This document shows, one piece after another, positions 12,273 through 64,000 of a stretch of DNA of 64,000 nucleotides (positions within the stretch are counted from its first letter, which is position 1; every line of letters starts with the position of its first letter). The translations under genes and the position numbers were made by a program. The stretch lies in the NCBI GenBank assembly GCA_037783545.1, contig JBBELK010000994.1, forward strand, positions 1 through 64,000, written 5' to 3'. The DNA comes from Henricia sp. BOLD:AAB3569 (taxonomy: Eukaryota > Echinodermata > Asteroidea > Spinulosida > Echinasteridae). The notes under the pieces were generated by a model. It did not search any database. It saw only the letters and a list, made by a program, of their open reading frames with translations, and was not told the origin of the DNA.

Positions 12273-12676
12273 TCTAGATTTGATATATTCCAGTTACAAC
12301 TGCTTGGTGCGCAAAAGCATGACTGGTCCCATGGTGTAACGGTTAGCACTCGAGACTCTGAATCTCGCGATCCGAGTTCAAATCTCGGTGGGACCTTGTA
12401 CGATTCTCAATTTTGTGTGAGTGGTTTACTGAAATGTTTTCGGTTAACTTCTAAATTTTATATATTCCAACTACAACTGCTTAGTGGTCATAAGTATGAC
12501 TGGTCCCATGGTGTAACGGTTATCACTCGAGACTCTGAATCTCGCGATCCGAGTTCAAATCTCGGTCGGACCTTGTATGGGTCAGTCTTTTGTGCAGGTT
12601 CTTTACTGTAATGTCTTTTATTAACTTCTACATTTTATATATTCTAGCTACAAGGGGTTGATCAAATAGTATGACT

Positions 12677-12763
12677 GGTCGCATGGTGTAATGGTTAGCA
12701 CTCGAGACTTTGAATCTCGCGATCCGAATTCAAATATCGGTGGTTCAAATCTCGGTGGGACCT
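12677..12763 (+). pseudogene. tRNA-Gln(TTG) with duplicated T arm
   Basis: 87 nt instead of 72. The T-loop/T-stem segment is present twice: an imperfect gaattcaaatatcggtgg is followed by ttcaaatctcggtgggacc. The acceptor also has the ggtcgca mismatch. The extra 15 nt should disturb the T arm. The same lesion is at 14281-14367, which sits in a duplicated block. Confidence 0.8.
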
Positions 12764-14280
12764 TGTATGGGTCAGGCTTTTGTGCAGGTTCTTTACAGCA
12801 ATGTATTTTATTAATTCTACTTTTTATATATTCTAGCTACAAGGGGTTGATGAAATAGTATGGCTGGTCGCATGGTGTAATGGTTAGCACTCGAGACTTT
12901 GAATCTCGCGATCCGAGTTCAAATCTGGGTGGGACCTTGTGCTATTTTAACCTGTGTGTGAGCGGTTTACTTCAATCTTTTCGGTTAACTTCTAGATTTG
13001 ATATATTCCAGTTACAACTGCTTGGTGTGCAAAAGCATGACTGGTCCCATGGTGTAATGGTTAGCACTCGAGACTTTGAATCTCGCGATCCGAGTTCAAA
13101 TCTGGGTGGGACCTTGTACGATTTTAACCTTTGTGTGAGCGGTTTACTCCAATCTTTTCGGTTAACTTCTAGATTTGATATATTCCAGTTACAACTGCTT
13201 GGTGTGCAAAAGCATGACTGGTCCCATGGTGTAACGGTTAGCACTCGAGACTCTGAATCTCGCGATCCGAGTTCAAATCTCGGTGGGACCTTGTACGATT
13301 TTAACCTTTGTGTGAGCGGTTTACTCCAATCTTTTCGGTTAACTTCTAGATTTGATATATTCCAGTTACAAATGCTTGTTGTGCAAATGCATGACTGGTC
13401 CCATAGCGTAACGGTTAGCACTCGAGACTCTGAATCTCGCGATCCGAGTTTAAATCTCGGTGGGACCTAATTGTACGATTCTCAATTTTGTGTGAGTGGT
13501 TTAATGAAATGTTTTCGGTTAACTTCTAAATTTTATATATTCTAACTACAACTGCTTAGTGGTCATAAGTATGACTGGTCCCGTGGTGTAACGGTTAGCA
13601 CTCGAGACTCTGAATCTCGCGATCCGAGTTCAAATCTCGGTGGGACCTTGTATGGGTCAGTCTTTTGTGCAGGTTCTTTACTGTAATGTCTTTTATTAAC
13701 TTCTACATTTTATATATTCTAGCTACAAGGGGTTGATCAAATAGTATGACTGGTCGCATGGTGTAATGGTTAGCACTCGAGACTTTGAATCTCGCGATCC
13801 GAGTTCAAATCTGGGTCGGACCTTGTACTATTTTAACCTTTGTGTGAGCGGTTTACTCCAATCTTTTCGGTTAACTTCTAGATTTGATATATTCCAGTTA
13901 TAACTGCTTGGTGTGCAAGAGCATGACTGGTCCCATGGTGTAACGGTTAGCACTCGAGACTCTGAATCTCGCGATCCGAGTTCAAATCTCGGTGGGACCT
14001 TGTACGATTTAAACCTTTGTGTGAGCGGTTTACTCCAATCTTTTCGGTTAACTTCTAGATTTGATATATTCCAGTTACAACTGCTTGGTGCGCAAAAGCA
14101 TGACTGGTCCCATGGTGTAACGGTTAGCACTCGAGACTCTGAATCTCGCGATCCGAGTTCAAATCTCGGTGGGACCTTGTATGGGTCAGTCTTTTGTGCA
14201 GGTTCTTTACTGTAATGTCTTTTATTAACTTCTACATTTTATATATTCTAGCTACAAGGGGTTGATCAAATAGTATGACT

Positions 14281-14367
14281 GGTCGCATGGTGTAATGGTT
14301 AGCACTCGAGACTTTGAATCTCGCGATCCGAATTCAAATATCGGTGGTTCAAATCTCGGTGGGACCT
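14281..14367 (+). pseudogene. tRNA-Gln(TTG) with duplicated T arm, second copy
   Basis: Same 15-nt T-arm duplication as at 12677, 1604 bp away. Copying as part of a multi-gene block is simpler than two independent events. Confidence 0.8.
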
Positions 14368-14824
14368 TGTATGGGTCAGGCTTTTGTGCAGGTTCTTTAC
14401 AGCAATGTATTTTATTAACTTCTACTTTTTATATATTCTAGCTACAAGGGGTTGATGAAATAGTATGACTGGTCGCATGGTGTAATGGTTAGCACTCGAG
14501 ACTTTGAATCTCGCGATCCGAGTTCAAATCTGGGTGGGACCTTGTGCTATTTTAACCTTTGTGTGAGCGGTTTACTTCAATCTTTTCGGTTAACTTCTAG
14601 ATTTGATATATTCCAGTTACAACTGCTTGGTGTGCAAAAGCATGACTGGTCCCATGGTGTAATGGTTAGCACTCGAGACTTTGAATCTCGCGATCCGAGT
14701 TCAAATCTGGGTGGGACCTTGTACGATTTTAACCTTTGTGTGAGCGGTTTACTCCAATCTTTTCGGTTAACTTCTAGATTTGATATATTCCAGTTACAAC
14801 TGCTTGTTGTGCAAAAGCATGACT

Positions 14825-14896
14825 GGTACCATAGCGTAACGGTTAGCACTCGAGACTCTGAATCTCGCGTTCCGAGTTTAAATCTCGGTGGGACCT
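14825..14896 (+). tRNA. Degenerate tRNA-Gln(CTG)
   Basis: Several changes fall in one copy: ggtaccat in the acceptor (C4 to A), atagcgtaac across box A, cgttccg before the T stem, and gtttaaatc in box B. The anticodon loop CTCTGAA is intact. Weak or no Pol III transcription is expected. Confidence 0.7.
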
Positions 14897-15528: not shown

Positions 15529-15948
15529 GGTCGCATGGTGTAATGGTTAGCACTCGAGACTTTGAATCTCGCGCTGAGTTCAAATCTGGGTGGGACCTTG
15601 TACTATTTTAACCTTTGTGTGAGCGGTTTACTCCAATCTTTTCGGTTAATTTCTAGATTTGATATATTCCAGTTACAACTGCTTGGTGTGCAAAAGCATG
15701 ACTGGTCCCATGGTGTAACGGTTAGCACTCTAGACTCTGAATCTAGCGATACGAGTTCAAATCTCGATGGGACCTTGTATGGGTCAGTCTTTTGTGCAGG
15801 TTCTTTACTGCAATGTCTTTTATTAACTTCTACATTTTATATATTTTAGCTACAAGGGGTTGATGAAATAGTATGACTGGTCGCATGGTGTAATGGTCAG
15901 CACTCGAGACTTTGAATCTCGCGCTGAGTTCAAATCTGAGTGGGACCT
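15529..15948 (+). repeat. 350-bp duplication with damaged TTG gene
   Basis: The pair 15529 (TTG) + 15704 (CTG) is repeated at 15879 + 16054, exactly 350 bp on. Both TTG copies (15529-15598 and 15879-15948) are 70 nt: gcgatccgag has become gcgctgag, removing part of the variable loop and T stem. Both are probably non-functional. Both CTG partners have the compensated anticodon stem described separately. Confidence 0.85.
15704..15775 (+). tRNA. tRNA-Gln(CTG) with compensated anticodon stem
   Basis: The anticodon stem is CTAGA/TCTAG instead of CGAGA/TCTCG. Positions 28 and 42 have both changed (G-C to T-A), so pairing is kept. The copy also has gatacgag before the T loop and ctcgatgg after it, which weakens the T stem. 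The second copy at 16054 has an intact T stem. Confidence 0.85.
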
Positions 15949-16053
15949 TGTACTATTTTAACCTTTGTGTGAGCGGTTTACTCCAATCTTTTCGGTTAAT
16001 TTCTAGATTTGATATATTCCAGTTACAACTGCTTGGTGTGCAAAAGCATGACT

Positions 16054-16125
16054 GGTCCCATGGTGTAACGGTTAGCACTCTAGACTCTGAATCTAGCGAT
16101 CCGAGTTCAAATCTCGGTGGGACCT
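16054..16125 (+). tRNA. tRNA-Gln(CTG) with compensated anticodon stem, intact
   Basis: Same T28-A42 replacement as at 15704, here with a normal T arm (ccgag/ctcgg) and acceptor, so the whole cloverleaf pairs. T4 terminators lie within the following cagtcttttgtg. Likely functional. Confidence 0.88.
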
Positions 16126-16227
16126 TGTATGGGTCAGTCTTTTGTGCAGGTTCTTTACTGCAATGTCTTTTATTAACTTCTACATTTTATATATTTTAGC
16201 AACTGCTTGGTGGTCATAGGCATGACT

Positions 16228-16314: not shown

Positions 16315-17110
16315 TGTATGGGTCAGGCTTTTGTGCAGGTTCTTTACTGCAATGTATTTTATTAACTTCTACATTTTATACATTCTAGCTACAAGGGGTT
16401 GATGAAATAGTATGACTGGTCGCATGGTGTAATGGTTAGCACTCGAGACTTTGAATCTCGCGATCCGAGTTCAAATCTGGGTGGGAACTTGTACTATTTT
16501 AACCTTTGTGTGAGCGGTTTACTCCAATCTGTTCGGTTAACTTCTAGATTTGATATATTCCAGTTACAACTGCTTGGTGTGCAAAAGCATGACTGGTCCC
16601 ATTGTGTAACGGTTAGCACTCGAGACTCTGAATCTCGCGATCCGAGTTCAAATATCGGTGGGACCTTGTACGATTCTCGATTTTGTGTGAGTGGTTTACT
16701 GAAATGTTTTCGGTTAACTTCTAAATTTTATATATTCGAGCTACAACTGCATGGTGTGCAAAAGCATGACTGGTCCCATGGTGTAACGGTTAGCACTCGA
16801 GACTCTGAATCTCGCGATCCGAGTTCAAATCTCGGTGGGACCTTGTATGGGTCAGGCTTTTGTGCAGGTTCTTTACGGCAATGTCTTTTATTAACTTCTA
16901 CATTTTATATATTCTAGCTACAAGGGGTTGATGAAATAGTATGACTTGTCGCCTGGTGTAATGGTTAGCACTCGAGACTTTGAATCTCGCGATCCGAGTT
17001 CAAATCTGGGTGATACCTTGTACTATTTTAACCTTTGTGCGAGCGGTTTACCCCAATCTTTTAATTTCTAGATTTGATATATTCCAGTTATAACTGCTTG
17101 GTGTGCAAAA

Positions 17111-17717
17111 ATGTACTTTCTTAGGAAGCAGTAAGCGTGTCGCATACTTGGGGCACAGGTGAACTGGTGCATTGAATAACGATTGTAGCAATGCAGTATA
17201 AAGATGCATGCTTGAGCGCATTGGTCACTCAGGTTTTTTGCACGCCACAGACAGGACGTACTAAATTTTAATTTAGTTTTATGTCAGTCTTTTCAGATTT
17301 CTCGACAATTCATTCTAGAGAAAAAGGTCTGTGAGTAGCTGAGCTGAGGTAAGTGAGCCGGAGGGTTAAGCGGTCCTCCCGCTGTGCGATTTTTGCCGCG
17401 AGTTGGGTGTGATTGGCTAAGATTGTGTGTAGAGCCTATAGGCCGTCTCCGATAATCGTGCCAATGCGTAGGAGGTTCGTGGTAGGGATCGCACAGTGGA
17501 GGGTCTGCTTTAGTCTCCCAACTGACGCCTAACGCCTCCACGAAAGTCGACGTCCAAGTCCTGTCCTACTGCGGTAAAGCCGAATTCCCAATCAAGTATA
17601 AAGTGTATTTTTACTGTTTTCTTCCACAGGTGCGCAGCGATGGTGCGCAGCGACGGCGCGTACAGGCGCGTTAGAAAATGATTTATTCGCGTTTAAGCGC
17701 AGCTTATCAGAGAATAA
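17111..17717. mobile_element. 607-bp single-copy insert, possible LTR fragment
   Basis: The spacer gtgtgcaaaa|gcatgac is split after 17110 and resumes at 17718; only aa at 17716-17717 could be a duplicated target. The interior matches neither repeat and is richer in GC. TATAAAG at 17197-17203 is followed about 28 bp later by TCACTCAG at 17225, the spacing of a Pol II TATA box and initiator. The insert begins atgtact, so it has the TG of an LTR 5' end. A candidate LTR 3' end is ccaca at 17624-17628, followed by a doubled ggtgcgcagcga at 17629-17653 that might hold a primer-binding site. Alternatively tttttactgttttcttccacag is a splice-acceptor-like tract. No coding domain is visible; an 82-residue minus-strand frame (17293-17541) resembles nothing I know. 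Confidence 0.4.
17197..17232 (+). promoter_or_regulatory. Candidate Pol II core promoter in the insert
   Basis: TATAAAG at 17197-17203 and TCACTCAG at 17225-17232, about 28 bp apart, match a TATA-plus-initiator layout. It is the only such arrangement I see outside the tRNA units. The assignment rests on motif and spacing only. Confidence 0.35.
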
Positions 17718-17725: not shown

Positions 17726-20700
17726 GGTCCCATGGTGTAACGGTTAGCACTCGAGACTCTGAATCTCGCGATCCGAGTTCGAATCACGGTGGAACCTTGT
17801 ATTGGTCATGCTTTTGTGCAGGTTCTTTACTGCAATGTCTTCTTTTATTAACTTTTACATTTTATATATTCTAGCTACAAGGGGTTGATGAAATAGTATG
17901 ACTGGTGCCATGGTGTAACGATTAGCACTCGAGACTCTGAATCTCGCGATCCGAGTTCAAATCTCGGTGGGACCTTGTACGATTCTCAATTTTGTGTGAG
18001 TGGTTTACTGAAATGTTTTCGGTTAACTTCTAAATTTTATATATTCCAGCTACAACTGCTTGGAGATCATAAGTGTGACTGGTCCCGTGGTGTAACGGTT
18101 AGCACTCGAGACTCTTAATCTCGCGATCCGAGTTCAAATCTCGGTGGGACCTTGTATGGGTCGGGCTTTTGTGCAGGTTCTTTACTGCAATGTATTTTAT
18201 TAACTTCTACATTTTATATATTCTAGCTACAAGGGGTTGATGAAATAGTATGACTGGTCGCATGGTGTAATGGTTAGCACTCGAGACTTTGAATCTCGAG
18301 ATCCGAGTTAAAATCTGGGTGGGACCTTGTACTAATTTAACCTTTGTGTGAGCGGTTTACTCCAATCTTTTCGGTTAATTTCTAGATTTGATATATTCCA
18401 GTTACAACTGCTTGGTGTGCAAAAGCATGACTGGTCCCATGGTGTAACGGTTAGCACTCGAGACTCTGAATCTCGCAATCCGAGTTCAAATCTCGGTGGG
18501 ACCTTGTACGATTCTCAATTTTGTGTCAGTGGTTTACTGAAATGTTTTCGGTTAACTTTTAAATTTTATACATTCCAGCTACAACTGCTTGGTGGTCATA
18601 AGTATGACTGGTCCCGTGGTGTAACGGTTAGCACTCGAGACTCTGAATCTCGCCATCCGAGTTTAAATCTTGGTGGGACCTTGTGCGATTCTCAATTTTG
18701 TGTGAGTGGTTTACTGAAATTTTTTCGGTTAACTTCTAAATTTTATATATTCCAGCTACAACTGCTTGGTGGTCATAGGTATGACTGGTCCCGTGGTGTA
18801 ACGGTTAGCACTCGAGACTCTGAATCTCGCGATCCGAGTTCAAATCTCGGTAGGACCTTGTATGGGTCAGTCCTTTGTGCAGGTTCTTTACTGCAATGTA
18901 TTTTATTAACTTCTACATTTTATATATTCTAGCTACAAGGGGATGATGAAATGGTATGACTGGTCCCATGGTGTAATGGTTAGCACTCGAGACTTTGAAT
19001 CTCGCGATCCGAGTTCAAATCTCGGTGGGACCTTGTACTATTTTAACCTTTGTGTGAGTGGTTTACTGAAATGTTTTTGGTTAACTTTTAGATTTGATAT
19101 ATTCTAGTTACAACTGCTTGGTGGTCATAGGTATGACTGGTCCCGTGGTGTAACGGTTAGCACTCGAGACTCTGAATCTCGCGATCCGAGTTCAAATCTC
19201 GGTGGGACCTTGTATGGGTCAGTCCTTTGTGCAGGTTCTTTACTGCAATGTCTTTTAATAACTTCTACATTTTATATATTCTAGCTACAAGGGGTTGATG
19301 AAATGGTATGACTGGTCCCATGGTGTAATGGTTAGGACTAGAGACTTTGAATCTCGCGATCCGAGTTCAAATCTCGGTGGGACCTTGTACTATTTTAACC
19401 TTTGTGTGAGTGGTATACTGAAATGTTTTCGGTTAACTTCTAGATTTGATATAGTTACAACTGCTTGGTGTGCAAAAGCATGACTGGTCCCATGGTGTAA
19501 CTGTTAGCACTCGAGACTCTGAATCTCGCGATCCGAGTTCAAATCTCGGTGGGACCTTGTATGTGTCAGTCTTTTGTGCAGGTTCTTTACTGCAATGTCT
19601 TTTATTAACTTCTACATTTTATATATTCTAGCTACAAGGGGTTGATCAAATGGTATGACTGGTCCCATGGTGTAATGGTTAGCACTCGAGACTTTGAATC
19701 TCGCGATCCGAGTTCAAATCTCGGTGGGACCTTGTACCTTTGTGTGAGCGGTTTACTCCAATTTTTTCGGTTAACTTCTAGATTTGATATATTCCAGTTA
19801 CAACTGCTTGGTGTGCAAAAGCATGACTGGTCCCATGGTGTAACGGTTAGCACTCGAGACTCTGAATCTCGCAATCCGAGTTCAAATCTCGGTGGGACCT
19901 TGTACGATTCTCAATTTTGTGTGAGTGGTTTACTGAAATGTTTTCGGTTAACTTCTAAATTTTATATATTCCAGCTACAACTGCTTGGTGGTCATAGGTA
20001 TGACTGGTCCCGTGGGGTAACGGTTATCACTCGAGACTCTGAATCTCGCGATCCGAGTTCAAATCTCGGTGGCACCTTGTATGGGTCAGTCCTTTGTGCA
20101 GGTTCTTTACTGCAATGTCTTTTATTAACTTCTACATTTTATATATTCTAGCAACAAGGGGTTGATGAGATGGTATTTCTGGTCCCATGGTGTAATGGTT
20201 AGCACTCGAGACTTTGAATCTCGCGATCCGAGTTCAAATCTCGGTGGGACCTTGGACTATTTTAACCTTTGTGTGAGTGGTATACTGAAATGTTTTCGGT
20301 TAACTTCTAGATTTGATATATTCTAGTTACAACTGCTTGGTGTGCAAAAGCATGACTGGTCCTATGGTGTAACGGTTAGCACTCGAGACTCTGAATTTCG
20401 CGATCCGAGTTCAAATCTCGGTGGGACCTTGTATGTGTCAGGTTCTTTACTGCAATGTCTTTTATTAACTTCTACATTTTATATATTCTAGCTACAAGGG
20501 GTTGATGAAATGGTATGACTGGTCCCATGGTGTAATGGTTAGCACTCGAGACTTTGAATCTCGCGATCCGAGTTCAAATCTCGGTGGGACCTTGTACCTT
20601 TGTGTGAGCGGTTTACTCCAATTTTTTCGGTTAACTTCTAGATTTGATATATTCCAGTTACAACTGCTTGGTGTGCAAAAGCATGACTGGTCCCATGGTG

Positions 20701-22264: not shown

Positions 22265-22356
22265 GGTCCCATGGTGTAACGGTTAGCACTCGAGACTCTG
22301 AATCCCGCGATCCTAGTTCGAATCTCGCGATCCGAGTTCAAATCTCGGTGGGACCT
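22265..22356 (+). pseudogene. tRNA-Gln(CTG) with 20-nt internal duplication
   Basis: 92 nt. After the anticodon loop the sequence gaatcccgcgatcctagttc is followed by a second gaatctcgcgatccgagttc, so the 3' anticodon stem, variable loop and part of the T arm are doubled. Boxes A and B both survive but lie 20 bp further apart, which Pol III can tolerate. The product would not fold normally. The same structure is at 23677-23768. Confidence 0.8.
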
Positions 22357-36151: not shown

Positions 36152-36385
36152 GGTCCCATGGTGTAACGGTTAGCACTCGAGACTCTGAATCTCGCGAATC
36201 GCGTTCAAATCTCGGTGGGACCTTGTACCTTTGTGTGAGCGGTGTAATGGTTAGCACTCGAGACTTTGAATCTCGCGATCCGAGTTCAAATCTCGGTGGG
36301 ACCTTGTACCTTTGTGTGAGCGGTGTAATGGTTAGCACTCGAGACTTTGAATCTCGCGATCCGAGTTCAAATCTCGGTGGGACCT
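36152..36385 (+). repeat. Compressed 81-bp tandem of truncated tRNA genes
   Basis: After 36152-36223 come two 5'-truncated TTG genes at 36241-36304 and 36322-36385, only 81 bp apart. Each is followed by ttgtacctttgtgtgagc and starts at ggtgtaatgg, so the spacer has recombined into the gene at agcggt/atggtg. Neither has its 5' acceptor strand or an upstream TATA-like element. It is the densest packing in the window. Confidence 0.85.
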
Positions 36386-36833
36386 TGTACCTTTGTGTGA
36401 GCGGTTTACTCCAATTTTTTCGGTTAACTTCTAGATTTGATATATTCCAGTTACAACTGCTTGGTGTGCAAAAGCATGACTGGTCCCATGGTGTAACGGT
36501 TAGCACTCGAGACTCTGAATCTCGCAATTCGAGTTCAAATCTCGGTGGAACCTTGTACGATTCTCAATTTTGTGTGAGTGGTTTACTGAAATGTTTTTGG
36601 TTAACTTCTAAATTTTATATATTCCAGCTACAACTGCTTGGTGGTCATAGGTATGACTGGTCCCGTGGTGTAACGGTTAGCACTCGAGACTCTGAATCTC
36701 GCGATCCGAGTTCAAATCTCGGTGGGACCTTGTATGGGTCAGTCTTTTGTGCAGGTTCTTTACTGCAATGTCTTTTATTAACTTCTACATTTTATATATT
36801 CTAGCTACAAGGGGTTGATGAAATGGTATGACT

Positions 36834-40300: not shown

Positions 40301-42317
40301 GCTTGGTGTGCAAAAGCATGACTGGTCCCATGGTGTAACGGTTAGCACTCGAGACTCTGAATCTCGCAATCCGAGTTCAAATCTCGGTGGAACCTTGTAC
40401 GATTCTCAATTTTGTGTGAGTGGTTTACTGAAATGTTTTTGGTTAACTTCTAAATTTTATATATTCCAGCTACAACTGCTTGGTGGTCATAGGTATGACT
40501 GGTCCCGTGGTGTAACGGTTAGCACTCGAGACTCTGAATCTCGCGATCCGAGTTCAAATCTCGGTGGGACCTTGTATGGGTCAGTCTTTTGTGCAGGTTC
40601 TTTACTGCAATGTCTTTTATTAACTTCTACATTTTATATATTCTAGCTACAAGGGGTTGATGAAATGGTATGACTGGTCCCATGGTGTAATGGTTAGCAC
40701 TCGAGACTTTGAATCTCGCGATCCGAGTTCAAATCTCGGTGGGACCTTGTACCTTTGTGTGAGCGATTTACTCCAATCTTTTCGGTTAACTTCTAGATTT
40801 GATATATTCCAGTTACAACTGTTTGGTGTGCAAAAGCATGACTGGTCCCATGGTGTAACGGTTAGCACTCGACACTCTGAATCTCGCAATCCGAGTTCAA
40901 ATCTTGGTGTGACCTTGTGCGATTCTCAATTTTGTGTGAGTGGTTTACTGAAATGTTTTCGGTTAACTTCTAAATTTTATATATTCCAGCTACAACTGCT
41001 TGGTGGTCATAGGTATGACTGGTCCCGTGGTGTAACGGTTAGCACTCGAGACTCTGAATCTCGCGATCCGAGTTCAAATCTCGGTGGGACCTTTTATGGG
41101 TCAGTCCTTTGTGCAGGTTCTTTACTGCAATGTATTTTATTAACTTCTACATTTTATATATTCTAGCTACAAGGGGTTGATGAAATGGTATGACTGGTCC
41201 CATGGTGTAATGGTTAACACTCGAGACTTTGAATCTCGCGATCCGAGTTCAAATCTCGGTGGGACCTTGTACCTTTGTGTGAGCGGTTTACTCCAATTTT
41301 TTCGGTTAACTTCTAGATTTGATATATTCCAGTTACAACTGCTTGGTGTGCAAAAGCATGACTGGTCCCATGGTGTAACGGTTAGCACTCGAGACTCTGA
41401 ATCTCGCGATCCGAGTTCAAATATCGGTGGGACCTTGTATGGGTCAGGCTTTTGTGCAGGTTCTTTACTGCAATGTCTTTTTATTAACTTTTACATTTTA
41501 TATATTCTAGCTACAAGGGGTTGATGAAATGATATGACTGGTCCCATGGTGTAATGGTTAGCACTCGGGACTCTGAATCTCTTGATCCGAGTTCAAATCT
41601 CGGTGGGACCTTGTACTATTTTAACCTTTGTGTGAGTGGTTTACTGAAATGTTTTCGGTTAACTTTTAGATTTGATATATTCTAGTTACAACTGCTTGGT
41701 GCGCAAAAGCATGACTGGTCCCATGGTGTAACGGTTAGCACTCGACACTCTGAATCTCGCGATCCGAGTTCAAATCTCGGTGGGACCTTGTATGGGTCAG
41801 GCTTTTGTGCAGGTTCTTTACTGCAATGTCTTTTATTAACTTCTACATTTTATATATTCTAGCTACAAGGGGTTGATGAAATGGTATGACTGGTCCCATG
41901 GTGTAATGGTTAGCACTCGAGACTTTGAATCTCGCGATCCGAGTTCAAATCTCGGTGGGACCTTGTACGATTCTCAATTTTGTGTGAGTGGTTTACTGAA
42001 ATGTTTTCGGTTAACTTCTAAATTTTATATATTCCAGCTACAACTGCTTGGTGGTCATAGGTATGACTGGTCCCGTGGTGTAACGGTTAGCACTCGAGAC
42101 TCTGAATCTCACGATCCGAGTTCAAATCTCGGTGGGATCTTGTTCTATTTTAACCTTTGTGTGAGCGATTTACTCCAATCTTTTCGGTTAACTTCTAGAT
42201 TTGATATATTCCAGTTACAACTGCTTGGTGTGCAAAAGCATGACTGGTCCCATGGTGTAACGGTTAGCACTCGAGACTCTGAATCTCGCGATCCGAGTTC
42301 AAATCTCGGTGGGACCT
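37354..42317 (+). tRNA. tRNA-Gln array, block 6 (29 loci)
   Basis: CTG genes start at 37522, 37863, 38215, 38392, 38735, 38912, 39264, 39441, 39618, 39795, 40147, 40324, 40501, 40844, 41021, 41364, 41540, 41717, 42069, 42246. TTG genes start at 37354, 37686, 38038, 38567, 39087, 39970, 40676, 41196, 41892. CGACA class: 38735, 39618, 40844, 41717. 37686 (TTG) and 41540 (CTG) share the CGGGA/TCTCT stem, so 41540 looks like a TTG-slot gene with a CTG anticodon. 38215 and 42069 have ctcacg, breaking the last anticodon-stem pair. 39087 and 39970 have gcggtcc. Confidence 0.93.
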
Positions 42318-45300
42318 TGTATGGGTCAGTCTTTTGTGCAGGTTCTTTACTGCAATGTCTTTTATTAACTTCTACATTTTATATATTCTAGCTACAAGGG
42401 GTTGATGAAATGGTATGACTGGTCCCATGGTGTAATGGTTAGCACTCGAGACTTTGAATCTCGCGATCCGAGTTCAAATCTCGGTGGGACCTTGTACCTT
42501 TGTGTGAGCGATTTACTCCAATCTTTTCGGTTAACTTCTAGATTTGATATATTCCAGTTACAACTGCTTGGTGTGCAAAAGCATGACTGGTCCCATGGTG
42601 TAACGGTTAGCACTCGACACTCTGAATCTCGCAATCCGAGTTCAAATCTTGGTGGGACCTTGTGCGATTCTCAATTTTGTGTGAGTGGTTTACTGAAATG
42701 TTTTCGGTTAACTTCTAAATTTTATATATTCCAGCTACAACTGCTTGGTGGTCATAGGTATGACTGGTCCCGTGGTGTAACGGTTAGCACTCGAGACTCT
42801 GAATCTCGCGATCCGAGTTCAAATCTCGGTGGGACCTTTTATGGGTCAGTCCTTTGTGCAGGTTCTTTACTGCAATTTATTTTATTAACTTCTACATTTT
42901 ATATATTCTAGCTACAAGGGGTTGATGAAATGGTATGACTGGTCCCATGGTGTAATGGTTAGCACTCGAGACTTTGAATCTCGCGGTCCGAGTTCAAATC
43001 TCGGTGGGACCTTGTACTATTTTAACCTTTGTGTGAGTGGTTTACTGAAATGTTTTCGGTTAACTTTTAGATTTGATATATTCTAGTTACAACTGCTTGG
43101 TGTTCAAAAGCATGACTGGTCCCATGGTGTAACGGTTAGCACTCGAGACTCTGAATCTCGCGATCCGAGTTCAAATCTCGGTGGGACCTTGTACGATTTT
43201 AACCTTTGTGTGAGCGGTTTACTCCAATATTTTCGGTTAACTTCTATATTTGATATATTCCAGTTACAACTGCTTGGTGTGCAAAAGCATGACGGGTCCC
43301 ATGGTGTAACGGTTAGCACTCGAGACTCTGAATCTCGCAATCCGAGTTCAAATCTCGGTGGGACCTTGTACGATTCTCAATTTTGTGTGAGTGGTTTACT
43401 GAAATGTTATCGGTTAACTTCTAAATTTTATATATTCCAGCTACAACTGCTTGGTGGTCATAAGTATGACTGGTCCCATGGTGTAACGGTTAGCACTCGA
43501 GACTCTGAATCTCGCGATCCGAGTTCAAATCTCGGTGGGATCTTGTATGGGTCAGTCTTTTGTGCAGGTTCTTTACTGCAATGTCTTTTATTAACTTCTA
43601 CATTTTATATACTCTAGCTACAAGGGGTTGATGAAATGGTATGACTGGTCCCATGGTGTAATGGTTAGCACTCGAGACTTTGAATCTCGCGATCCGAGTT
43701 CAAATCTCGGTGGGACCTTGTATGGGTCAGTCTTTTGTGCAGGTTCTTTACTGCAATGTCTTTTATTAACTTCTACATTTTATATATTCTAGCTACAAGG
43801 GGTTGATGAAATGGTATGACTGGTCCCATGGTGTAATGGTTAGCACTCGAGACTTTGAATCTCGCGATCCGAGTTCAAATCTCGGTGGGACCTTGTACCT
43901 TTGTGTGAGCGGTTTACTCCAATTTTTTTTCGGTTAACTTCTAGATTTGATATATTCCAGTTACAACTACTTGGTGTGCAAAAGCATGACTGGTCCCATG
44001 GTGTAACGGTTAGCACTCGACACTCTGAATCTCGCGATCCGAGTTCAAATCTCGGTGGGACCTTGTATGGGTCAGGCTTTTGTGCAGGTTCTTTACTGCA
44101 ATGTCTTTTATTAACTTCTACATTTTATATATTCTAGCTACAAGGGGTTGATGAAATGGTATGACTGGTCCCATGGTGTAATGGTTAGCACTCGAGACTT
44201 TGAATCTCGCGATCCGAGTTCAAATCTCGGTGGGACCTTGTACGATTCTCAATTTTGTGTGAGTGGTTTACTGAAATGTTTTCGGTTAACTTCTAAATTT
44301 TATATATTCCAGCTACAACTGCTTGGTGGTCATAGGTATGACTGGTCCCGTGGTGTAACGGTTAGCACTCGAGACTCTGAATCTCACGATCCGAGTTCAA
44401 ATCTCGGTGGGATCTTGTTCTATTTTAACCTTTGTGTGAGCGATTTACTCCAATCTTTTCGGTTAACTTCTAGATTTGATATATTCCAGTTACAACTGCT
44501 TGGTGTGCAAAAGCATGACTGGTCCCATGGTGTAACGGTTAGCACTCGAGACTCTGAATCTCGCGATCCGAGTTCAAATCTCGGTGGGACCTTGTATGGG
44601 TCAGTCTTTTGTGCAGGTTCTTTACTGCAATGTCTTTTATTAACTTCTACATTTTATATATTCTAGCTACAAGGGGTTGATGAAATGGTATGACTGGTCC
44701 CATGGTGTAATGGTTAGCACTCGAGACTTTGAATCTCGCGATCCGAGTTCAAATCTCGGTGGGACCTTGTACCTTTGTGTGAGCGATTTACTCCAATCTT
44801 TTCGGTTAACTTCTAGATTTGATATATTCCAGTTACAACTGGTTGGTGTGCAAAAGCATGACTGGTCCCATGGTGTAACGGTTAGCACTCGACACTCTGA
44901 ATCTCGCAATCCGAGTTCAAATCTTGGTGGGACCTTGTGCGATTCTCAATTTTGTGTGAGTGGTTTACTGAAATGTTTTCGGTTAACTTCTAAATTTTAT
45001 ATATTCCAGCTACAACTGCTTGGTGGTCATAGGTATGACTGGTCCCGTGGTGTAACGGTTAGCACTCGAGACTCTGAATCTCGCGATCCGAGTTCAAATC
45101 TCGGTGGGACCTTTTATGGGTCAGTCCTTTGTGCAGGTTCTTTACTGCAATTTATTTTATTAACTTCTACATTTTATATATTCTAGCTACAAGGGGTTGA
45201 TGAAATGGTATGACTGGTCCCATGGTGTAATGGTTAGCACTCGAGACTTTGAATCTCGCGGTCCGAGTTCAAATCTCGGTGGGACCTCGTACTATTTTAA

Positions 45301-48300
45301 CCTTTGTGTGAGTGGTTTACTGAAATGTTTTCGGTTAACTTTTAGATTTGATATATTCTAGTTACAACTGCTTGGTGTTCAAAAGCATGACTGGTCCCAT
45401 GGTGTAACGGTTAGCACTCGAGACTCTGAATCTCGCGATCCGAGTTCAAATCTCGGTGGGACCTTGTACGATTTTAACCTTTGTGTGAGCGGTTTACTCC
45501 AATATTTTCGGTTAACTTCTATATTTGATATATTCCAGTTACAACTGCTTGGTGTGCAAAAGCATGACGGGTCCCATGGTGTAACGGTTAGCACTCGAGA
45601 CTCTGAATCTCGCAATCCGAGTTCAAATCTCGGTGGGACCTTGTACGATTCTCAATTTTGTGTGAGTGGTTTACTGAAATGTTATCGGTTAACTTCTAAA
45701 TTTTATATATTCCAGCTACAACTGCTTGGTGGTCATAAGTATGACTGGTCCCATGGTGTAACGGTTAGCACTCGAGACTCTGAATCTCGCGATCCGAGTT
45801 CAAATCTCGGTGGGATCTTGTATGGGTCAGTCTTTTGTGCAGGTTCTTTACTGCAATGTCTTTTATTAACTTCTACATTTTATATACTCTAGCTACAAGG
45901 GGTTGATGAAATGGTATGACTGGTCCCATGGTGTAATGGTTAGCACTCGAGACTTTGAATCTCGCGATCCGAGTTCAAATCTCGGTGGGACCTTGTATGG
46001 GTCAGTCTTTTGTGCAGGTTCTTTACTGCAATGTCTTTTATTAACTTCTACATTTTATATATTCTAGCTACAAGGGGTTGATGAAATGGTATGACTGGTC
46101 CCATGGTGTAATGGTTAGCACTCGAGACTTTGAATCTCGCGATCCGAGTTCAAATCTCGGTGGGACCTTGTACCTTTGTGTGAGCGGTTTACTCCAATTT
46201 TTTTCCGGTTAACTTCTAGATTTGATATATTCCAGTTACAACTACTTGGTGTGCAAAAGCATGACTGGTCCCATGGTGTAACGGTTAGCACTCGACACTC
46301 TGAATCTCGCAGTCCGAGTTCAAATATCGGTGGGACCTTGTATGGGTCAGGCTTTTGTGCAGGTTCTTTACTGCAATGTCTTTTTATTAACTTTTACATT
46401 TTATATATTCTAGCTACAAGGGGTTGATGAAATGATATGACTGGTCCCATGGTGTAATGGTTAGCACTCGGGACTCTGAATCTCTTGATCCGAGTTCAAA
46501 TCTCGGTGGGACCTTGTACTATTTTAACCTTTGTGTGAGTGGTTTACTGAAATGTTTTCGGTTAACTTTTAGATTTGATATATTCTAGTTACAACTGCTT
46601 GGTGCGCAAAAGCATGACTGGTCCCATGGTGTAACGGTTAGCACTCGAGACTCTGAATCTCGCGATCCGAGTTCAAATCTCGGTGGGACCTTGTATGGGT
46701 CAGGCTTTTGTGCAGGTTCTTTACTGCAATGTCTTTTATTAACTTCTACATTTTATATATTCTAGCTACAAGGGGTTGATGAAATGGTATGACTGGTCCC
46801 ATGGTGTAATGGTTAGCACTCGAGACTTTGAATCTCGCGATCCGAGTTCAAATCTCGGTGGGACCTTGTACCTTTGTGTGAGCGATTTACTCCAATCTTT
46901 TCGGTTAACTTCTAGATTTGATATATTCCAGTTACAACTGGTTGGTGTGCAAAAGCATGACTGGTCCCATGGTGTAACGGTTAGCACTCGACACTCTGAA
47001 TCTCGCAATCCGAGTTCAAATCTTGGTGGGACCTTGTGCGATTCTCAATTTTGTGTGAGTGGTTTACTGAAATGTTTTCGGTTAACTTCTAAATTTTATA
47101 TATTCCAGCTACAACTGCTTGGTGGTCATAGGTATGACTGGTCCCGTGGTGTAACGGTTAGCACTCGAGACTCTGAATCTCGCGATCCGAGTTCAAATCT
47201 CGGTGGGACCTTTTATGGGTCAGTCCTTTGTGCAGGTTCTTTACTGCAATTTATTTTATTAACTTCTACATTTTATATATTCTAGCTACAAGGGGTTGAT
47301 GAAATGGTATGACTGGTCCCATGGTGTAATGGTTAGCACTCGAGACTTTGAATCTCGCGGTCCGAGTTCAAATCTCGGTGGGACCTTGTACTATTTTAAC
47401 CTTTGTGTGAGTGGTTTACTGAAATGTTTTCGGTTAACTTTTAGATTTGATATATTCTAGTTACAACTGCTTGGTGTTCAAAAGCATGACTGGTCCCATG
47501 GTGTAACGGTTAGCACTCGAGACTCTGAATCTCGCGATCCGAGTTCAAATCTCGGTGGGACCTTGTACGATTTTAACCTTTGTGTGAGCGGTTTACTCCA
47601 ATATTTTCGGTTAACTTCTATATTTGATATATTCCAGTTACAACTGCTTGGTGTGCAAAAGCATGACGGGTCCCATGGTGTAACGGTTAGCACTCGAGAC
47701 TCTGAATCTCGCAATCCGAGTTCAAATCTCGGTGGGACCTTGTACGATTGTCAATTTTGTGTGAGTGGTTTACTGAAATGTTATCGGTTAACTTCTAAAT
47801 TTTATATATTCCAGCTACAACTGCTTGGTGGTCATAAGTATGACTGGTCCCATGGTGTAACGGTTAGCACTCGAGACTCTGAATCTCGCGATCCGAGTTC
47901 AAATCTCGGTGGGATCTTGTATGGGTCAGTCTTTTGTGCAGGTTCTTTACTGCAATGTCTTTTATTAACTTCTACATTTTATATACTCTAGCTACAAGGG
48001 GTTGATGAAATGGTATGACTGGTCCCATGGTGTAATGGTTAGCACTCGAGACTTTGAATCTCGCGATCCGAGTTCAAATCTCGGTGGGACCTTGTATGGG
48101 TCAGTCTTTTGTGCAGGTTCTTTACTGCAATGTCTTTTATTAACTTCTACATTTTATATATTCTAGCTACAAGGGGTTGATGAAATGGTATGACTGGTCG
48201 CATGGTGTAATGGTTAGCACTCGAGACTTTGAATCTCGCGATCCGAGTTCAAATCTCGGTGGGACCTTGTACCTTTGTGTGAGCGGTTTACTCCAATTTT

Positions 48301-48437
48301 TTTTCGGTTAACTTCTAGATTTGATATATTCCAGTTACAACTACTTGGTGTGCAAAAGCATGACTGGTCCCATGGTGTAACGGTTAGCACTCGACACTCT
48401 GAATCTCGCAGTCCGAGTTCAAATCTCGGTGGGACCT
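41717..48437 (+). repeat. 2275-bp higher-order repeat, about three copies
   Basis: The 13-gene block 41717-43991 is repeated at 43992-46266, every gene start shifted by 2275 bp (42421/44696, 43118/45393, 43822/46097). A third copy follows at a 2099-bp step (44696/46795, 45393/47492, 46267/48366), i.e. with about one gene unit less. Shared marks are tgttcaaaagcatgac before one CTG gene, gacgggtccc before the next, and tatactctag in a third spacer. A further partial copy of the marks is at 50471-50825. Confidence 0.85.
42421..47211 (+). tRNA. tRNA-Gln array, block 7 (28 loci)
   Basis: CTG genes start at 42589, 42766, 43118, 43295, 43472, 43992, 44344, 44521, 44864, 45041, 45393, 45570, 45747, 46267, 46443, 46620, 46963, 47140. 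TTG genes start at 42421, 42941, 43647, 43822, 44167, 44696, 45216, 45922, 46097, 46795. CGACA class: 42589, 43992, 44864, 46267, 46963. TTG pairs stand side by side at 43647/43822 and 45922/46097. 43295 and 45570 follow gacg instead of gact. 44344 has ctcacg. 46443 is a CTG gene in a TTG-type flank with stem CGGGA/TCTCT, like 41540. Confidence 0.93.
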
Positions 48438-51400
48438 TGTACTATTTTAACCTTTGTGTGAGTGGTTTACTGAAATGTTTTCGGTTAACTTTTAGATTTG
48501 ATATATTCTAGTTACAACTGCTTGGTGCGCAAAAGCATGACTGGTCCCATGGTGTAACGGTTAGCACTCGAGACTCTGAATCTCGCGATCCGAGTTCAAA
48601 TCTCGGTGGGACCTTGTATGGGTCAGGCTTTTGTGCAGGTTCTTTACTGCAATGTCTTTTATTAACTTCTACATTTTATATATTCTAGCTACAAGGGGTT
48701 GATGAAATGGTATGACTGGTCCCATGGTGTAATGGTTAGCACTCGAGACTTTGAATCTCGCGATCCGAGTTCAAATCTCGGTGGGACCTTGTACGATTCT
48801 CAATTTTGTGTGAGTGGTTTACTGAAATGTTTTTGGTTAACTTCTAAATTTTATATATTCCAGCTACAACTGCTTGGTGGTCATAGGTATGACTGGTCCC
48901 GTGGTGTAACGGTTAGCACTCGAGACTCTGAATCTCACGATCCGAGTTCAAATCTCGGTGGGATCTTGTTCTATTTTAACCTTTGTGTGAGCGATTTACT
49001 CCAATCTTTTCGGTTAACTTCTAGATTTGATATATTCCAGTTACAACTGCTTGGTGTGCAAAAGCATGACTGGTCCCATGGTGTAACGGTTAGCACTCGA
49101 GACTCTGAATCTCGCGATCCGAGTTCAAATCTCGGTGGGACCTTGTATGGGTCAGTCTTTTGTGCAGGTTCTTTACTGCAATGTCTTTTATTAACTTCTA
49201 CATTTTATATATTCTAGCTACAAGGGGTTGATGAAATGGTATGACTGGTCCCATGGTGTAATGGTTAGCACTCGAGACTTTGAATCTCGCGATCCGAGTT
49301 CAAATCTCGGTGGGACCTTGTACCTTTGTGTGAGCGATTTACTCCAATCTTTTCGGTTAACTTCTAGATTTGATATATTCCAGTTACAACTGCTTGGTGT
49401 GCAAAAGCATGACTGGTCCCATGGTGTAACGGTTAGCACTCGACACTCTGAATCTCGCAATCCGAGTTCAAATCTTGGTGGGACCTTGTGCGATTCTCAA
49501 TTTTGTGTGAGTGGTTTACTGAAATGTTTTCGGTTAACTTCTAAATTTTATATATTCCAGCTACAACTGCTTGGTGGTCATAGGTATGACTGGTCCCGTG
49601 GTGTAACGGTTAGCACTCGAGACTCTGAATCTCGCGATCCGAGTTCAAATCTCGGTGGGACCTTTTATGGGTCAGTCCTTTGTGCAGGTTCTTTACTGCA
49701 ATTTATTTTATTAACTTCTACATTTTATATATTCTAGCTACAAGGGGTTGATGAAATGGTATGACTGGTCCCATGGTGTAATGGTTAGCACTCGAGACTC
49801 TGAATCTCGCGATCCGAGTTCAAATCTCGGTGGGACCTTTTATGGGTCAGTCCTTTGTGCAGGTTCTTTACTGCAATTTATTTTATTAACTTCTACATTT
49901 TATATATTCTAGCTACAAGGGGTTGATGAAATGGTATGACTGGTCCCATGGTGTAACGGTTAGCACTCGACACTCTGAATCTCGCAATCCGAGTTCAAAT
50001 CTTGGTGGGACCTTGTGCGATTCTCAATTTTGTGTGAGTGGTTTACTGAAATGTTTTCGGTTAACTTCTAAATTTTATATATTCCAGCTACAACTGCTTG
50101 GTGGTCATAGGTATGACTGGTCCCGTGGTGTAACGGTTAGCACTCGAGACTCTGAATCTCGCGATCCGAGTTCAAATCTCGGTGGGACCTTTTATGGGTC
50201 AGTCCTTTGTGCAGGTTCTTTACTGCAATTTATTTTATTAACTTCTACATTTTATATATTCTAGCTACAAGGGGTTGATGAAATGGTATGACTGGTCCCA
50301 TGGTGTAATGGTTAGCACTCGAGACTTTGAATCTCGCGGTCCGAGTTCAAATCTCGGTGGGACCTTGTACTATTTTAACCTTTGTGTAAGTGGTTTACTG
50401 AAATGTTTTCGGTTAACTTTTAGATTTGATATATTCTAGTTACAACTGCTTGGTGTTCAAAAGCATGACTGGTCCCATGGTGTAACGGTTAGCACTCGAG
50501 ACTCTGAATCTCGCGATCCGAGTTGAAATCTCGGTGGGACCTTGTACGATTTTAACCTTTGTGTGAGCGGTTTACTCCAATATTTTCGGTTAACTTCTAT
50601 ATTTGATATATTCCAGTTACAACTGCTTGGTGTGCAAAAGCATGACGGGTCCCATGGTGTAACGGTTAGCACTCGAGACTCTGAATCTCGCAATCCGAGT
50701 TCAAATCTCGGTGGGACCTTGTACGATTCTCAATTTTGTGTGAGTGGTTTACTGAAATGTTATCGGTTAACTTCTAAATTTTATATATTCCAGCTACAAC
50801 TGCTTGGTGGTCATAAGTATGACTGGTCCCATGGTGTAACGGTTAGCACTCGAGACTCTGAATCTCGCGATCCGAGTTCAAATCTCGGTGGGATCTTGTA
50901 TGGGTCAGTCTTTTGTGCAGGTTCTTTACTGCAATGTCTTTTATTAACTTCTACATTTTATATACTCTAGCTACAAGGGGTTGATGAAATGGTATGACTG
51001 GTCCCATGGTGTAATGGTTAGCACTCGAGACTTTGAATCTCGCGATCCGAGTTCAAATCTCGGTGGGACCTTGTATGGGTCAGTCTTTTGTGCAGGTTCT
51101 TTACTGCAATGTCTTTTATTAACTTCTACATTTTATATATTCTAGCTACAAGGGGTTGATGAAATGGTATGACTGGTCCCATGGTGTAATGGTTAGCACT
51201 CGAGACTTTGAATCTCGCGATCCGAGTTCAAATCTCGGTGGGACCTTGTACCTTTGTGTGAGCGGTTTACTCCAATTTTTTTTCGGTTAACTTCTAGATT
51301 TGATATATTCCAGTTACAACTACTTGGTGTGCAAAAGCATGACTGGTCCCATGGTGTAACGGTTAGCACTCGACACTCTGAATCTCGCAGTCCGAGTTCA

Positions 51401-62086: not shown

Positions 62087-62191
62087 TGTACGATTCTCAA
62101 TTTTGTGTGAGTGGTTTACTGAAATGTTTTCGGTTAACTTCTAAATTTTATATATTCCAGCTACAACTGCTTGGTGGTCATAGGTATGACT

Positions 62192-64000
62192 GGTCCCGTG
62201 GTGTAACGGTTAGCACTCGAGACTCTGAATCTCGCGATCCGAGTTCAAATCTCGGTGGGACCTTGTATGGGTCAGTCTTTTGTGCAGGTTCTTTACTGCA
62301 ATGTCTTTTATTAACTTCTACATTTTATATATTCTAGCTACAAGGGGTTGATGAAATGGTATGACTGGTCCCATGGTGTAATGGTTAGCACTCGAGACTT
62401 TGAATCTCGCGATCCGAGTTCAAATCTCGGTGGGACCTTGTACTATTTTAACCTTTGTGTGAGTGGTTTACTGAAATGTTTTCGGTTAACTTTTAGATTT
62501 GATATATTCTAGTTACAACTGCTTGGTGTGCAAAAGCATGACTGGTCCCTTGGTGTGACGGTTAGCACTCGAGACTCTGAATCTCGCGATCCGAGTTCAA
62601 ATCTCGGTGGGACCTTGTATGGGTCAGGCTTTTGTGCAGGTTCTTTACTGCAATGTCTTTTATTAACTTCTACATTTTATATATTCTAGCTACAAGGGGT
62701 TGATGAAAGGGTATCACTGGTCCCATGGTGTAATGGTTAGCACTCGAGACTTTGAATCTCGCGATCCGAGTTCAAATCTCGGTGGGACCTTGTACTATTT
62801 TAACCTTTGTGTGAGTGGTTTACTGAAATGTTTTCGGTTAACTTTTAGATTTGATATATTCTAGTTACAACTGCTTGGTGTGCAAAAGCATGACTGGTCC
62901 CTTGGTGTAACGGTTAGCACTCGAGACTCTGAATCTCGCGATCCGAGTTCAAATCTCGGTGGGACCTTGTATGGGTCAGGCCTTTGTGCAGGTTCTTTAC
63001 TGCAATGTCTTTTATTAACTTCTACATTTTATATATTCTAGCTACAAGGGGTTGATGAAAGGGTATGACTGGTCCCATGGTGTAATGGTTAGCACTCGAG
63101 ACTTTGAATCTCGCGATCCGAGTCCAAATCTCGGTGGGACATTGTACCTTTGTGTGAGCGGTTTACTCCATTTCTTTCGGTTAACTTCTAGATTTGATAT
63201 ATTCCAGTTACAACTGCTTGGTGTGCAAAAGCATGACTGGTCCCATGGTGTAACGGTTAGCACTCGAGACTCTGAATCTCGCAATCCGAGTTCAAATCTC
63301 GGTGGGACCTTCTATGGGTCAGTCCTTTGTGCAGGTTCTTTACTGCAATGTGTTTTATTAACTTCTACATTTTATATATTCTAGCTACAAGGGGTTGATA
63401 AAATGGTATGACTGGTCCCATGGTGTAATGGTTAGCACTCGAGACTTTGAATCTCGCGATCCGAGTTCAAATCTCGGTGGGACCTTGTACTATTTTAACC
63501 TTTGTGTGAGTGGTTTACTGAAATGTTTTCGGTTAACTTTTAGATTTGATATATTCTAGTTACAACTGCTTGGTGTGCAAAAGCATGACTGGTCCCTTGG
63601 TGTGACGGTTAGCACTCGAGACTCTGAATCTCGCGATCCGAGTTCAAATCTCGGTGGGACCTTGTATGGGTCAGGCTTTTGTGCAGGTTCTTTACTGCAA
63701 TGTCTTTTATTAACTTCTACATTTTATATATTCTAGCTACAAGGGGTTGATGAAAGGGTATCACTGGTCCCATGGTGTAATGGTTAGCACTCGAGACTTT
63801 GAATCTCGCGATCCGAGTTCAAATCTCGGTGGGACCTTGTACTATTTTAACCTTTGTGTGAGTGGTTTACTGAAATGTTTTCGGTTAACTTTTAGATTTG
63901 ATATATTCTAGTTACAACTGCTTGGTGTGCAAAAGCATGACTGGTCCCTTGGTGTAACGGTTAGCACTCGAGACTCTGAATCTCGCGATCCGAGTTCAAA
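62192..64000 (+). tRNA. tRNA-Gln array, block 11 (11 loci, runs off the window)
   Basis: CTG genes start at 62192, 62544, 62896, 63239, 63591 and 63943 (cut after 58 nt by the window end). TTG genes start at 62367, 62719, 63071, 63414, 63766. CTG copies 62544, 62896, 63591 and 63943 begin ggtccct, a T7.T66 mismatch at the base of the acceptor; 62544 and 63591 also have tggtgtgacgg in box A. The pattern CTG-TTG alternates here instead of the three-gene order, with a 1047-bp step (62544/63591, 62719/63766, 62896/63943). The array continues beyond 64000. Confidence 0.93.

What the first reader, a model, noticed from the sequence alone, without database searches (positions are those of the whole stretch)
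12325..64000. About 293 tRNA-Gln genes in one uninterrupted head-to-tail array
I read 293 loci of one tRNA family, all on the + strand, about 175 bp apart, still running at the window edge. That alone rivals the whole tRNA gene set of many eukaryotes. Most copies keep both internal boxes, a pairing cloverleaf and a T-run, so many could be transcribed. Possible meanings: supply for CAG/CAA-rich proteins, a source of tRNA fragments, a Pol III-bound chromatin block beside satellite DNA, or a selfish repeat that happens to be a tRNA gene.
Basis: partly seen in the sequence, partly recalled or inferred. Interest (0 to 1): 0.9.

Follow-up and report, generated by a model that had tools for sequence, protein, structure and literature searches.

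The report
Giant tRNA-Gln gene array in starfish
A genome that is most probably a starfish's carries a tandem run of over 900 tRNA-Gln genes next to a very abundant satellite DNA, and its copies now mutate as freely as the DNA between them, some having become complete stop-codon-reading tRNA genes, so it is a natural test of what happens when an essential gene turns into satellite-like DNA.

Summary
Confirmed, and larger than reported. The window holds 293 tRNA-Gln genes, all on +. The array runs on along the same contig to 172.4 kb: 909 genes in 160 kb. Further copies are spread over at least 59 kb of contig C93. The genome is 740.7 Mb; its COX1 points to a sea star.

The unit is about 177 bp, with three diverged spacer lineages, probably from a small cluster of one TTG and two CTG genes. 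Lineages keep the tRNA body almost unchanged while spacers differ widely, yet new mutations hit gene and spacer alike. Duplicated blocks have spread otherwise perfect amber (CTA) and ochre (TTA) suppressor versions. The array abuts a 273-bp satellite with 108,763 exact 52-mer matches genome-wide. Lys and Lys/Tyr arrays also exist.

Best reading: a functional tRNA cluster amplified into satellite-like DNA, most copies dispensable and probably silent. A stage-specific working supply is the main rival. Tandem tRNA arrays are known; size, satellite setting and amplified suppressors are unusual. Expression is untested.

The parts
1..12270 (.). 273-bp satellite, about 45 monomers in the window; the last 10 kb of contig C93 are the same satellite; 108,763 exact matches of a 52-mer from it genome-wide
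12260..12324 (+). junction of satellite and array, with the upstream part of the first unit kept
   Evidence: sequence; TRF rows meet at 12260-12270
12325..64000 (+). tRNA-Gln array, 293 gene starts in the window; continues to about 172.4 kb of contig C994 (909 starts)
12325..12396 (+). first complete tRNA-Gln (CTG) gene; its 71-nt body is identical to the CTG consensus used as query
12866..12937 (+). example of the TTG isoacceptor form (T at positions 16 and 34), preceded by a type-A spacer, as is usual (95 of 102 genes after spacer A in the window are TTG)
12444..12476 (+). example (with one change) of the conserved upstream block, unit columns 120-152, about -58 to -26: TTAACTTCTAnATTTnATATATTCnAGnTACAA. 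Consensus differences in these 33 sites: A-B 4, A-C 2, B-C 3; in the 48 downstream sites: 21, 17, 9
15704..16125 (+). two genes, at 15704 and 16054, with CTAGA/TCTAG anticodon stem (G28-C42 changed to T-A on both sides)
17107..17705 (.). insertion of about 600 bp, single copy in the window; shares a repeat with sequence beside the C84 tRNA-Gln genes; no Rfam match
18081..18152 (+). copy with Lys anticodon CTT in an otherwise intact tRNA-Gln body
36160..36405 (+). three tandem copies of a shortened 81-bp unit
39000..51000 (+). region rich in higher-order repeats (offsets 2099, 2275, 4374 bp)

Best explanation
This is a tRNA gene that has become satellite DNA. A small working cluster of tRNA-Gln genes (one TTG, two CTG, 175-177 bp apart, with diverged spacers but conserved bodies and upstream blocks) was amplified by unequal exchange and block duplication to about a thousand copies beside an abundant 273-bp satellite. 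Since then single copies have been dispensable: mutations accumulate in gene and spacer alike and are spread by duplication of blocks of several units, including otherwise perfect amber and ochre suppressor anticodons. Most of the array probably does not feed translation and is probably silent in most cells. Shown: size, lineages, linkage, mutation patterns, higher-order repeats, satellite contact. Inferred: founder cluster, unequal exchange, silence.
For: Three spacer lineages with a preferred cyclic order A>TTG gene>B>CTG>C>CTG>A (534 of 899 junctions). Positions 7, 16 and 34 are tied to the upstream spacer (Cramer V 0.88-0.92) and 45 to the downstream one (0.77). Between lineages the gene consensus differs at only 4 positions (7, 16, 34, 45), all of kinds I class as tolerated, while spacers differ at 16-32 of 105 sites; rare variants (1-2 copies) are as dense in the gene (1.84-1.85 per site) as in the spacer (1.48); Fisher p 6e-6, 3e-4 and 5e-3 for A-B, A-C and B-C (window alone). 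Disruptive share of gene variants: singletons 77/98 = 0.79, equal to 0.79 of all possible changes; 52/69, 31/45 and 9/19 for 2-4, 5-14 and 15+ copies; 0/4 for the lineage differences. Suppressors: 7 CTA (5 perfect) and 14 TTA (11 perfect); all 16 perfect ones keep an upstream block and a T-run in the printed flanks (the strict TATATATTC test fails in the five amber ones, whose type-B block reads GATATATTC). Exact suppressor cores: 21 genome-wide, 20 on C994, 1 on C93. Self-match offsets of 1385 to 5748 bp and more. Share of copies with intact stems and Gln anticodon is lowest in the two end bins (0.40 and 0.45, against 0.51-0.75 inside), as in satellites.
Against: No expression or chromatin data. 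Half of the copies (455 of 909) are still strictly canonical, Rfam scores are high, and 671 of 909 have a T-run within 30 nt, 817 of 909 keep ATGACT before the gene. Widely spread variants are less disruptive than singletons (Fisher p 0.03), which weak selection could also give. In the window alone the anticodon loop looked protected (1 rare event, 8.3 expected; scan-corrected p 0.11); over 903 units this weakened but did not vanish for rare variants (6 seen, 12.4 expected, nominal p 0.04) and vanished for variants in 3 or more copies (8 seen, 8.8 expected). Recombination inside the gene could homogenise it and mimic past purifying selection, although the linkage of positions 7, 16 and 34 argues against free exchange. 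The B-C contrast is weak (p 0.06 and 0.11 for commoner variants).
Confidence: 0.6

Rival explanations
1. A working supply array: the copies are transcribed in bulk, perhaps only in oocytes or early embryos, as proposed for repetitive maternal tRNA genes of zebrafish.
For: 455 of 909 copies strictly canonical; conserved upstream block and terminators; few dispersed tRNA-Gln genes found by the patterns used (three intact CTG on C84; one TTG on C577 and two on C329); all of the 100 listed of 381 exact Lys-TTT cores lie in arrays on C109 and C837 (the other 281 places were not shown); zebrafish paper, passages on maternal isodecoders in repetitive regions (PMC11417395).
Against: No per-copy constraint seen; amplified amber and ochre suppressors; half of the copies fail the strict canonical test.
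Confidence: 0.22
2. A structural element: Pol III factors bound to the array, or the array DNA itself, form a boundary or part of the pericentromere beside the 273-bp satellite.
For: Direct contact with a satellite that makes up at least about 4% of the assembly if each 52-mer match stands for one monomer; the last copy seen on C93, same strand, lies within 14 kb of the same satellite (the DNA between was not read); nucleosome-sized unit. That fission yeast tRNA genes act as pericentromeric barriers is recalled, not looked up.
Against: Centromere identity not tested; the Lys arrays were not examined for satellite contact; A-box and B-box sites vary about as much as the rest of the gene (1.09 and 1.22 rare events per site against 1.30, window).
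Confidence: 0.1
3. The array is a source of tRNA fragments or other small RNA.
For: Many nearly identical copies with promoter-like parts.
Against: Nothing specific; no RNA data available.
Confidence: 0.04
4. Assembly artefact: expanded or mis-joined copies.
For: The mitochondrial genome appears as a contig with three COX1 copies 16,221 bp apart, so assembly errors occur; copy number cannot be checked by depth here.
Against: In the whole 160 kb the longest exact internal repeat is 2,358 bp; 98 distinct 71-mers among 292 genes in the window; graded spacer lineages; and a stretch on C93 that shares derived variants (2 of 56 matches of one variant; 1 of 21 suppressor cores).
Confidence: 0.04

Closest known systems
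Very long complex tandem repeats of tRNA genes in the nematode Nippostrongylus brasiliensis (PMC5765664; passages, and parts 1 and 2 of 3 of its Results and discussion)
   Same: Tandem single-isotype nuclear tRNA arrays: close to 150 copies of a roughly 200-bp tRNA-Trp unit; 90 copies of tRNA-Ser with an 80-bp spacer.
   Different: Here 909 copies on one contig plus more on a second, tRNA-Gln with two isoacceptors in three spacer lineages, higher-order repeats, amplified suppressor anticodons, contact with an abundant satellite, and an echinoderm host.
tRNA gene arrays of Entamoeba (PMC2652664; abstract and the section on function)
   Same: Tandem arrays of tRNA genes; function unresolved; many copies suspected inactive.
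   Different: In Entamoeba almost all tRNA genes are in arrays, with units of up to 5 genes, most copies uniform within an isolate, and no clear pseudogenes.
Arabidopsis SYY (Ser-Tyr-Tyr) cluster on chromosome 1 (PMC12308677; abstract and one results section)
   Same: Tandem tRNA cluster meeting heterochromatin, with intact and pseudogene copies; silenced in most tissues, active in root cap cells.
   Different: 54 clustered Tyr copies against about a thousand Gln genes; other isotypes; a plant with DNA methylation over the cluster.
Zebrafish repetitive tRNA genes on chromosome 4 (PMC11417395; passages)
   Same: Very large clustered tRNA gene families in a repeat-rich chromosome arm.
   Different: Thousands of genes of many isotypes; expression of maternal isodecoders from repetitive regions was measured there.
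Human tRNA variable number tandem repeat at 1q23.3 (PMC4041453; abstract)
   Same: Tandem, copy-number-variable tRNA-bearing unit; tRNA genes conserved while most of the unit is not.
   Different: 7.3-kb units, 9-43 copies per allele, CTCF site.
Ordinary satellite DNA with higher-order repeats (general knowledge)
   Same: Tandem, nucleosome-length unit, higher-order repeats, block duplication, decayed ends.
   Different: The unit is a complete tRNA gene whose founders appear to have been under selection.

Membership tests
Functional tRNA-Gln gene | Cloverleaf with Gln anticodon, A-box and B-box | tested here: met
   Met by about half of the copies: 162 of 292 full copies in the window, 455 of 909 in the contig; 291 over the Rfam cut-off in the window.
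Functional tRNA-Gln gene | Transcribed by Pol III and aminoacylated | not testable with these tools
   No RNA, ChIP or charging data.
Functional tRNA-Gln gene | Current purifying selection on each copy | tested here: not met
   Rare variants as dense in gene as in spacer; singletons as disruptive as random changes. The anticodon loop is a possible weak exception (nominal p 0.04).
Tandem single-isotype tRNA array (as in N. brasiliensis) | Head-to-tail units of one tRNA gene plus a spacer, tens to hundreds of copies | tested here: met
Satellite DNA | Long tandem array with higher-order repeats | tested here: met
Satellite DNA | Heterochromatic location | not testable with these tools
   Only contact with an abundant satellite was shown.
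tRNA-derived SINE | Dispersed insertions with a 3' tail and target-site duplications | tested here: not met
   Units are head to tail; of 919 exact-core matches 641 lie on this contig; the 21 and 56 variant matches, listed in full, lie only on C93 and C994. Target-site duplications and tails were not searched for.
Entamoeba-type tRNA arrays | Most tRNA isotypes of the genome in array units | tested here: inconclusive
   Lys and Lys/Tyr arrays exist, but only 63 of 135,043 first-look tRNA candidates were scored.
Centromeric or pericentromeric DNA | CENP-A or heterochromatin marks | not testable with these tools
   The satellite is abundant, but no other satellite was counted, so it is not shown to be the commonest.

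The most novel reading that the evidence does not exclude
The array is transcribed at some stage, such as oogenesis, and its intact genes with UUA and CUA anticodons make natural nonsense-suppressor tRNA-Gln, so that this sea star reads UAA and UAG codons as glutamine at a low rate. It would be an animal with amplified genomic suppressor tRNAs.
Probability: 0.1. Interest if true: 0.88.

Novelty: new variant of a known kind. Interest (0 to 1): 0.66.

Why it matters
It catches an essential gene family after its conversion into satellite-like DNA. Because the unit is a gene whose function can be read from sequence, one can ask when selection acted (before amplification) and when it stopped (after), which ordinary satellites do not allow. 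The amplified amber and ochre suppressor copies make a direct test possible: either the array is silent, or an animal tolerates many suppressor tRNA genes. It also warns that tRNA gene counts from long-read assemblies can be raised greatly by arrays and should not be read as supply.

Tried and rejected
Nematode origin: suspected from the N. brasiliensis parallel and a satellite motif (recalled); the SL1 search found nothing (but its controls rang nowhere) and COX1 then pointed to sea stars, so rejected. Anticodon-loop protection as a sign of expression: suggestive in the window, weaker with 903 units (rare variants 6 against 12.4 expected, nominal p 0.04; variants in 3 or more copies 8 against 8.8; all 14 against 21.1, p 0.07); not used as support. 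CpG-methylation decay: no excess of CpG transitions among rare variants. Rare variants are transversion-rich (ts 74, tv 136) against ts 25, tv 27 in the satellite; part may be sequencing error or misalignment, so the contrast was repeated on commoner variants: at least 3 copies, p 2e-4, 3e-4, 0.06 for A-B, A-C, B-C; at least 2 copies in 265 of 291 clean units, p 6e-4, 8e-4, 0.11; at least 3 copies in 903 units, p 4e-4, 0.011, 0.02. MFE folding does not give the cloverleaf (-29.3 and -32.4 kcal/mol, against -22.5 for the cloverleaf); noted, not used. Lys/Tyr arrays: gene against spacer variation in 13 and 12 units from the top-scoring loci was uninformative. Exact 27-base pattern scans of GTDB and IMG/VR contigs and blastn of parts of the window (12219-13300 against phages, 11500-13300 against plasmids): no match. 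Rfam on the insert: none. The ten paper searches were used before the host was known, so none asked about sea stars; absence from print is not claimed. Passages of three more papers were seen and are not relied on (PMC2888827, PMC9679248, PMC8450103).

Rows dropped before counts: one unit of 779 bp (291 of 292 units kept); units outside 120-215 bp (903 of 908 kept); one edge-cut gene (292 of 293).
Full report
OBSERVATION. The array is real. In the window 293 tRNA-Gln starts lie on the + strand from 12325 to the edge, with no minus-strand match. ARAGORN genes and Rfam 291, 270 of those 291 with at least 50 bits. Of 292 full copies 187 have anticodon CTG and 101 TTG; 162 have every stem paired, both internal boxes and a Gln anticodon. 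The run is broken only by an insertion of about 600 bp near 17.1-17.7 kb. To the left is a 273-bp satellite.

EXTENT AND HOST. The window is the start of contig C994 (421,861 bp) of a 740.7-Mb assembly in 2104 contigs. Reading on to 264 kb, the array reaches a start at 172,327: 909 starts in 160 kb, all +. Beyond it no tRNA gene was called in the two 10-kb stretches scanned, L020 and L028, and two open frames tested there match rhodopsin-type receptors. Variant forms are on C93 at 2,663,743 and up to 2,685,544. C93 ends at 2,709,417, and its last 10 kb are the same satellite on the same strand. So C93 and C994 may be the two sides of one locus split by the satellite. Because that satellite is so common (56,059 + 52,704 exact 52-mer matches; about 29.7 Mb or 4% of the assembly if each stands for one monomer), this is plausible, not shown. 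A 447-residue stretch of COX1 translated with code 9 is 97% identical to Meridiastra gunnii, 96% to several other sea stars and 94% to sea urchins, so the host is most probably a sea star; the tRNA order next to COX1 fits asteroid mitochondria as I recall them.

ANATOMY. Spacers form three lineages, A, B and C (102, 119 and 70 units in the window; 345, 328 and 230 in the contig). In the contig 273 of 343 genes after spacer A are TTG, 317 of 326 after B and 224 of 230 after C are CTG. The commonest order is A>B>C>A (534 of 899 junctions). A block about 26-58 bp upstream (TTAACTTCTAnATTTnATATATTCnAGnTACAA) and the last six bases before the gene (ATGACT) differ little between lineages, while much of the rest of the spacer differs. 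Blocks of several units are duplicated, with self-match offsets such as 1385, 2623, 2959 and 5748 bp; the longest exact internal repeat in 160 kb is 2,358 bp, which speaks against a gross assembly duplication. The share of copies with intact stems and Gln anticodon is lowest in the two end bins.

SELECTION THEN AND NOW. Between lineages the gene consensus differs at four positions only: 7 (A-U to G-U pair), 16 (D loop), 34 (wobble base, both Gln) and 45 (variable loop), all of kinds I class as tolerated. Positions 7, 16 and 34 are tied to the upstream spacer (Cramer V about 0.9), so the gene is not freely shuffled among lineages. The spacers differ at 16-32 of 105 sites. Within lineages, rare variants are as dense in the gene as in the spacer (1.84-1.85 against 1.48 per site), a contrast with Fisher p of 6e-6, 3e-4 and 5e-3 for A-B, A-C and B-C. 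The B-C pair is the weakest and is not significant in two stricter versions. Singletons are disruptive in 77 of 98 cases, equal to the 0.79 of all possible changes; the share falls to 9 of 19 for variants in 15 or more copies and is 0 of 4 for the lineage differences. The simplest account is that the lineages diverged while the genes still mattered, as a small cluster, and that selection on single copies stopped after amplification. A small cluster of three intact CTG genes, two of them identical to the array consensus over 71 nt, exists on C84. It shows the kind of founder meant, not the founder itself: its flanks look different.

SUPPRESSOR COPIES. Seven genes carry anticodon CTA (amber) and fourteen TTA (ochre). 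Five and eleven of these are otherwise perfect, with an upstream block and a T-run in place. Their spacings include 1385 bp, one of the block offsets, and 2789 bp, the difference between offsets 5748 and 2959. Exact suppressor cores number 21 in the genome: 20 on C994 and 1 on C93. In a strongly expressed array such genes should be harmful. Their spread therefore suggests that at least these stretches are silent, or that the animal tolerates low-level read-through. This is inference; no RNA data were available.

CONTEXT IN THE GENOME. Other tRNA arrays exist: Lys-TTT on C837 with a unit of about 583 bp, and divergent Lys/Tyr pairs on C109 with about 593 bp. The exact Lys core occurs 381 times, the first 100 listed only on those two contigs. 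Dispersed tRNA-Gln genes also exist: one canonical TTG on C577 and two on C329. Amplified tRNA genes are thus not peculiar to this locus, which leaves room for the supply rival.

KNOWN RELATIVES. The closest described case seen is N. brasiliensis, with about 150 tRNA-Trp and 90 tRNA-Ser units (PMC5765664). Entamoeba arrays (PMC2652664), the Arabidopsis SYY cluster, silent in most tissues (PMC12308677), zebrafish repetitive tRNA genes (PMC11417395) and a human tRNA repeat (PMC4041453) are of the same kind. [quoted passage not shown] it was not tested here. So the array is a new variant of a known kind, remarkable for size, satellite setting and suppressor copies.

LIMITS. No reads, no RNA, no chromatin data, no relatives of this genome in the tools. 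The statistical tests treat variants as independent events, and shared ancestry and recombination weaken that. Classing changes as tolerated or disruptive is my own rule (pairing kept, or a named variable position).

Noticed in passing
L039-L042 (contigs C955 and C2104): The mitochondrial genome is held as a 16,221-bp contig and also as a 48,576-bp contig with three COX1 copies 16,221 bp apart, most likely an assembly concatemer.
   Followed up: no
L001-L008 (contigs C109 and C837): Lys-TTT and divergent Lys/Tyr tRNA arrays. In 13 C109 units the Lys gene had 9 variable sites of 73 but the Tyr gene 1 of 85; the sample is small and biased to top scores.
   Followed up: partly
window 17107-17705 and L029-L031: The insertion in the array shares a short repeat with several places beside the C84 tRNA-Gln genes, 69-94% identity.
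   Followed up: no
   Followed up: no
window 12325-12396 and similar: The anticodon stem (CGAGA/TCTCG) resembles the T arm, so energy folding prefers a non-cloverleaf; the resemblance may also explain the 20-bp tandem duplications at 22300 and 23712.
   Followed up: partly
C994 200-233 kb (L022-L025): Two single-frame ORFs in the flank match rhodopsin-type receptors and two more look alike.
   Followed up: partly
window 15704 and 16054: Two genes carry a double change in the anticodon stem (G28-C42 to T-A), an intermediate between the array stem and the common animal stem as recalled.
   Followed up: partly
window 1-12270: The 273-bp satellite is far more homogeneous (mean pairwise difference 1.2%) than the tRNA array lineages (3-6%).
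   Followed up: no
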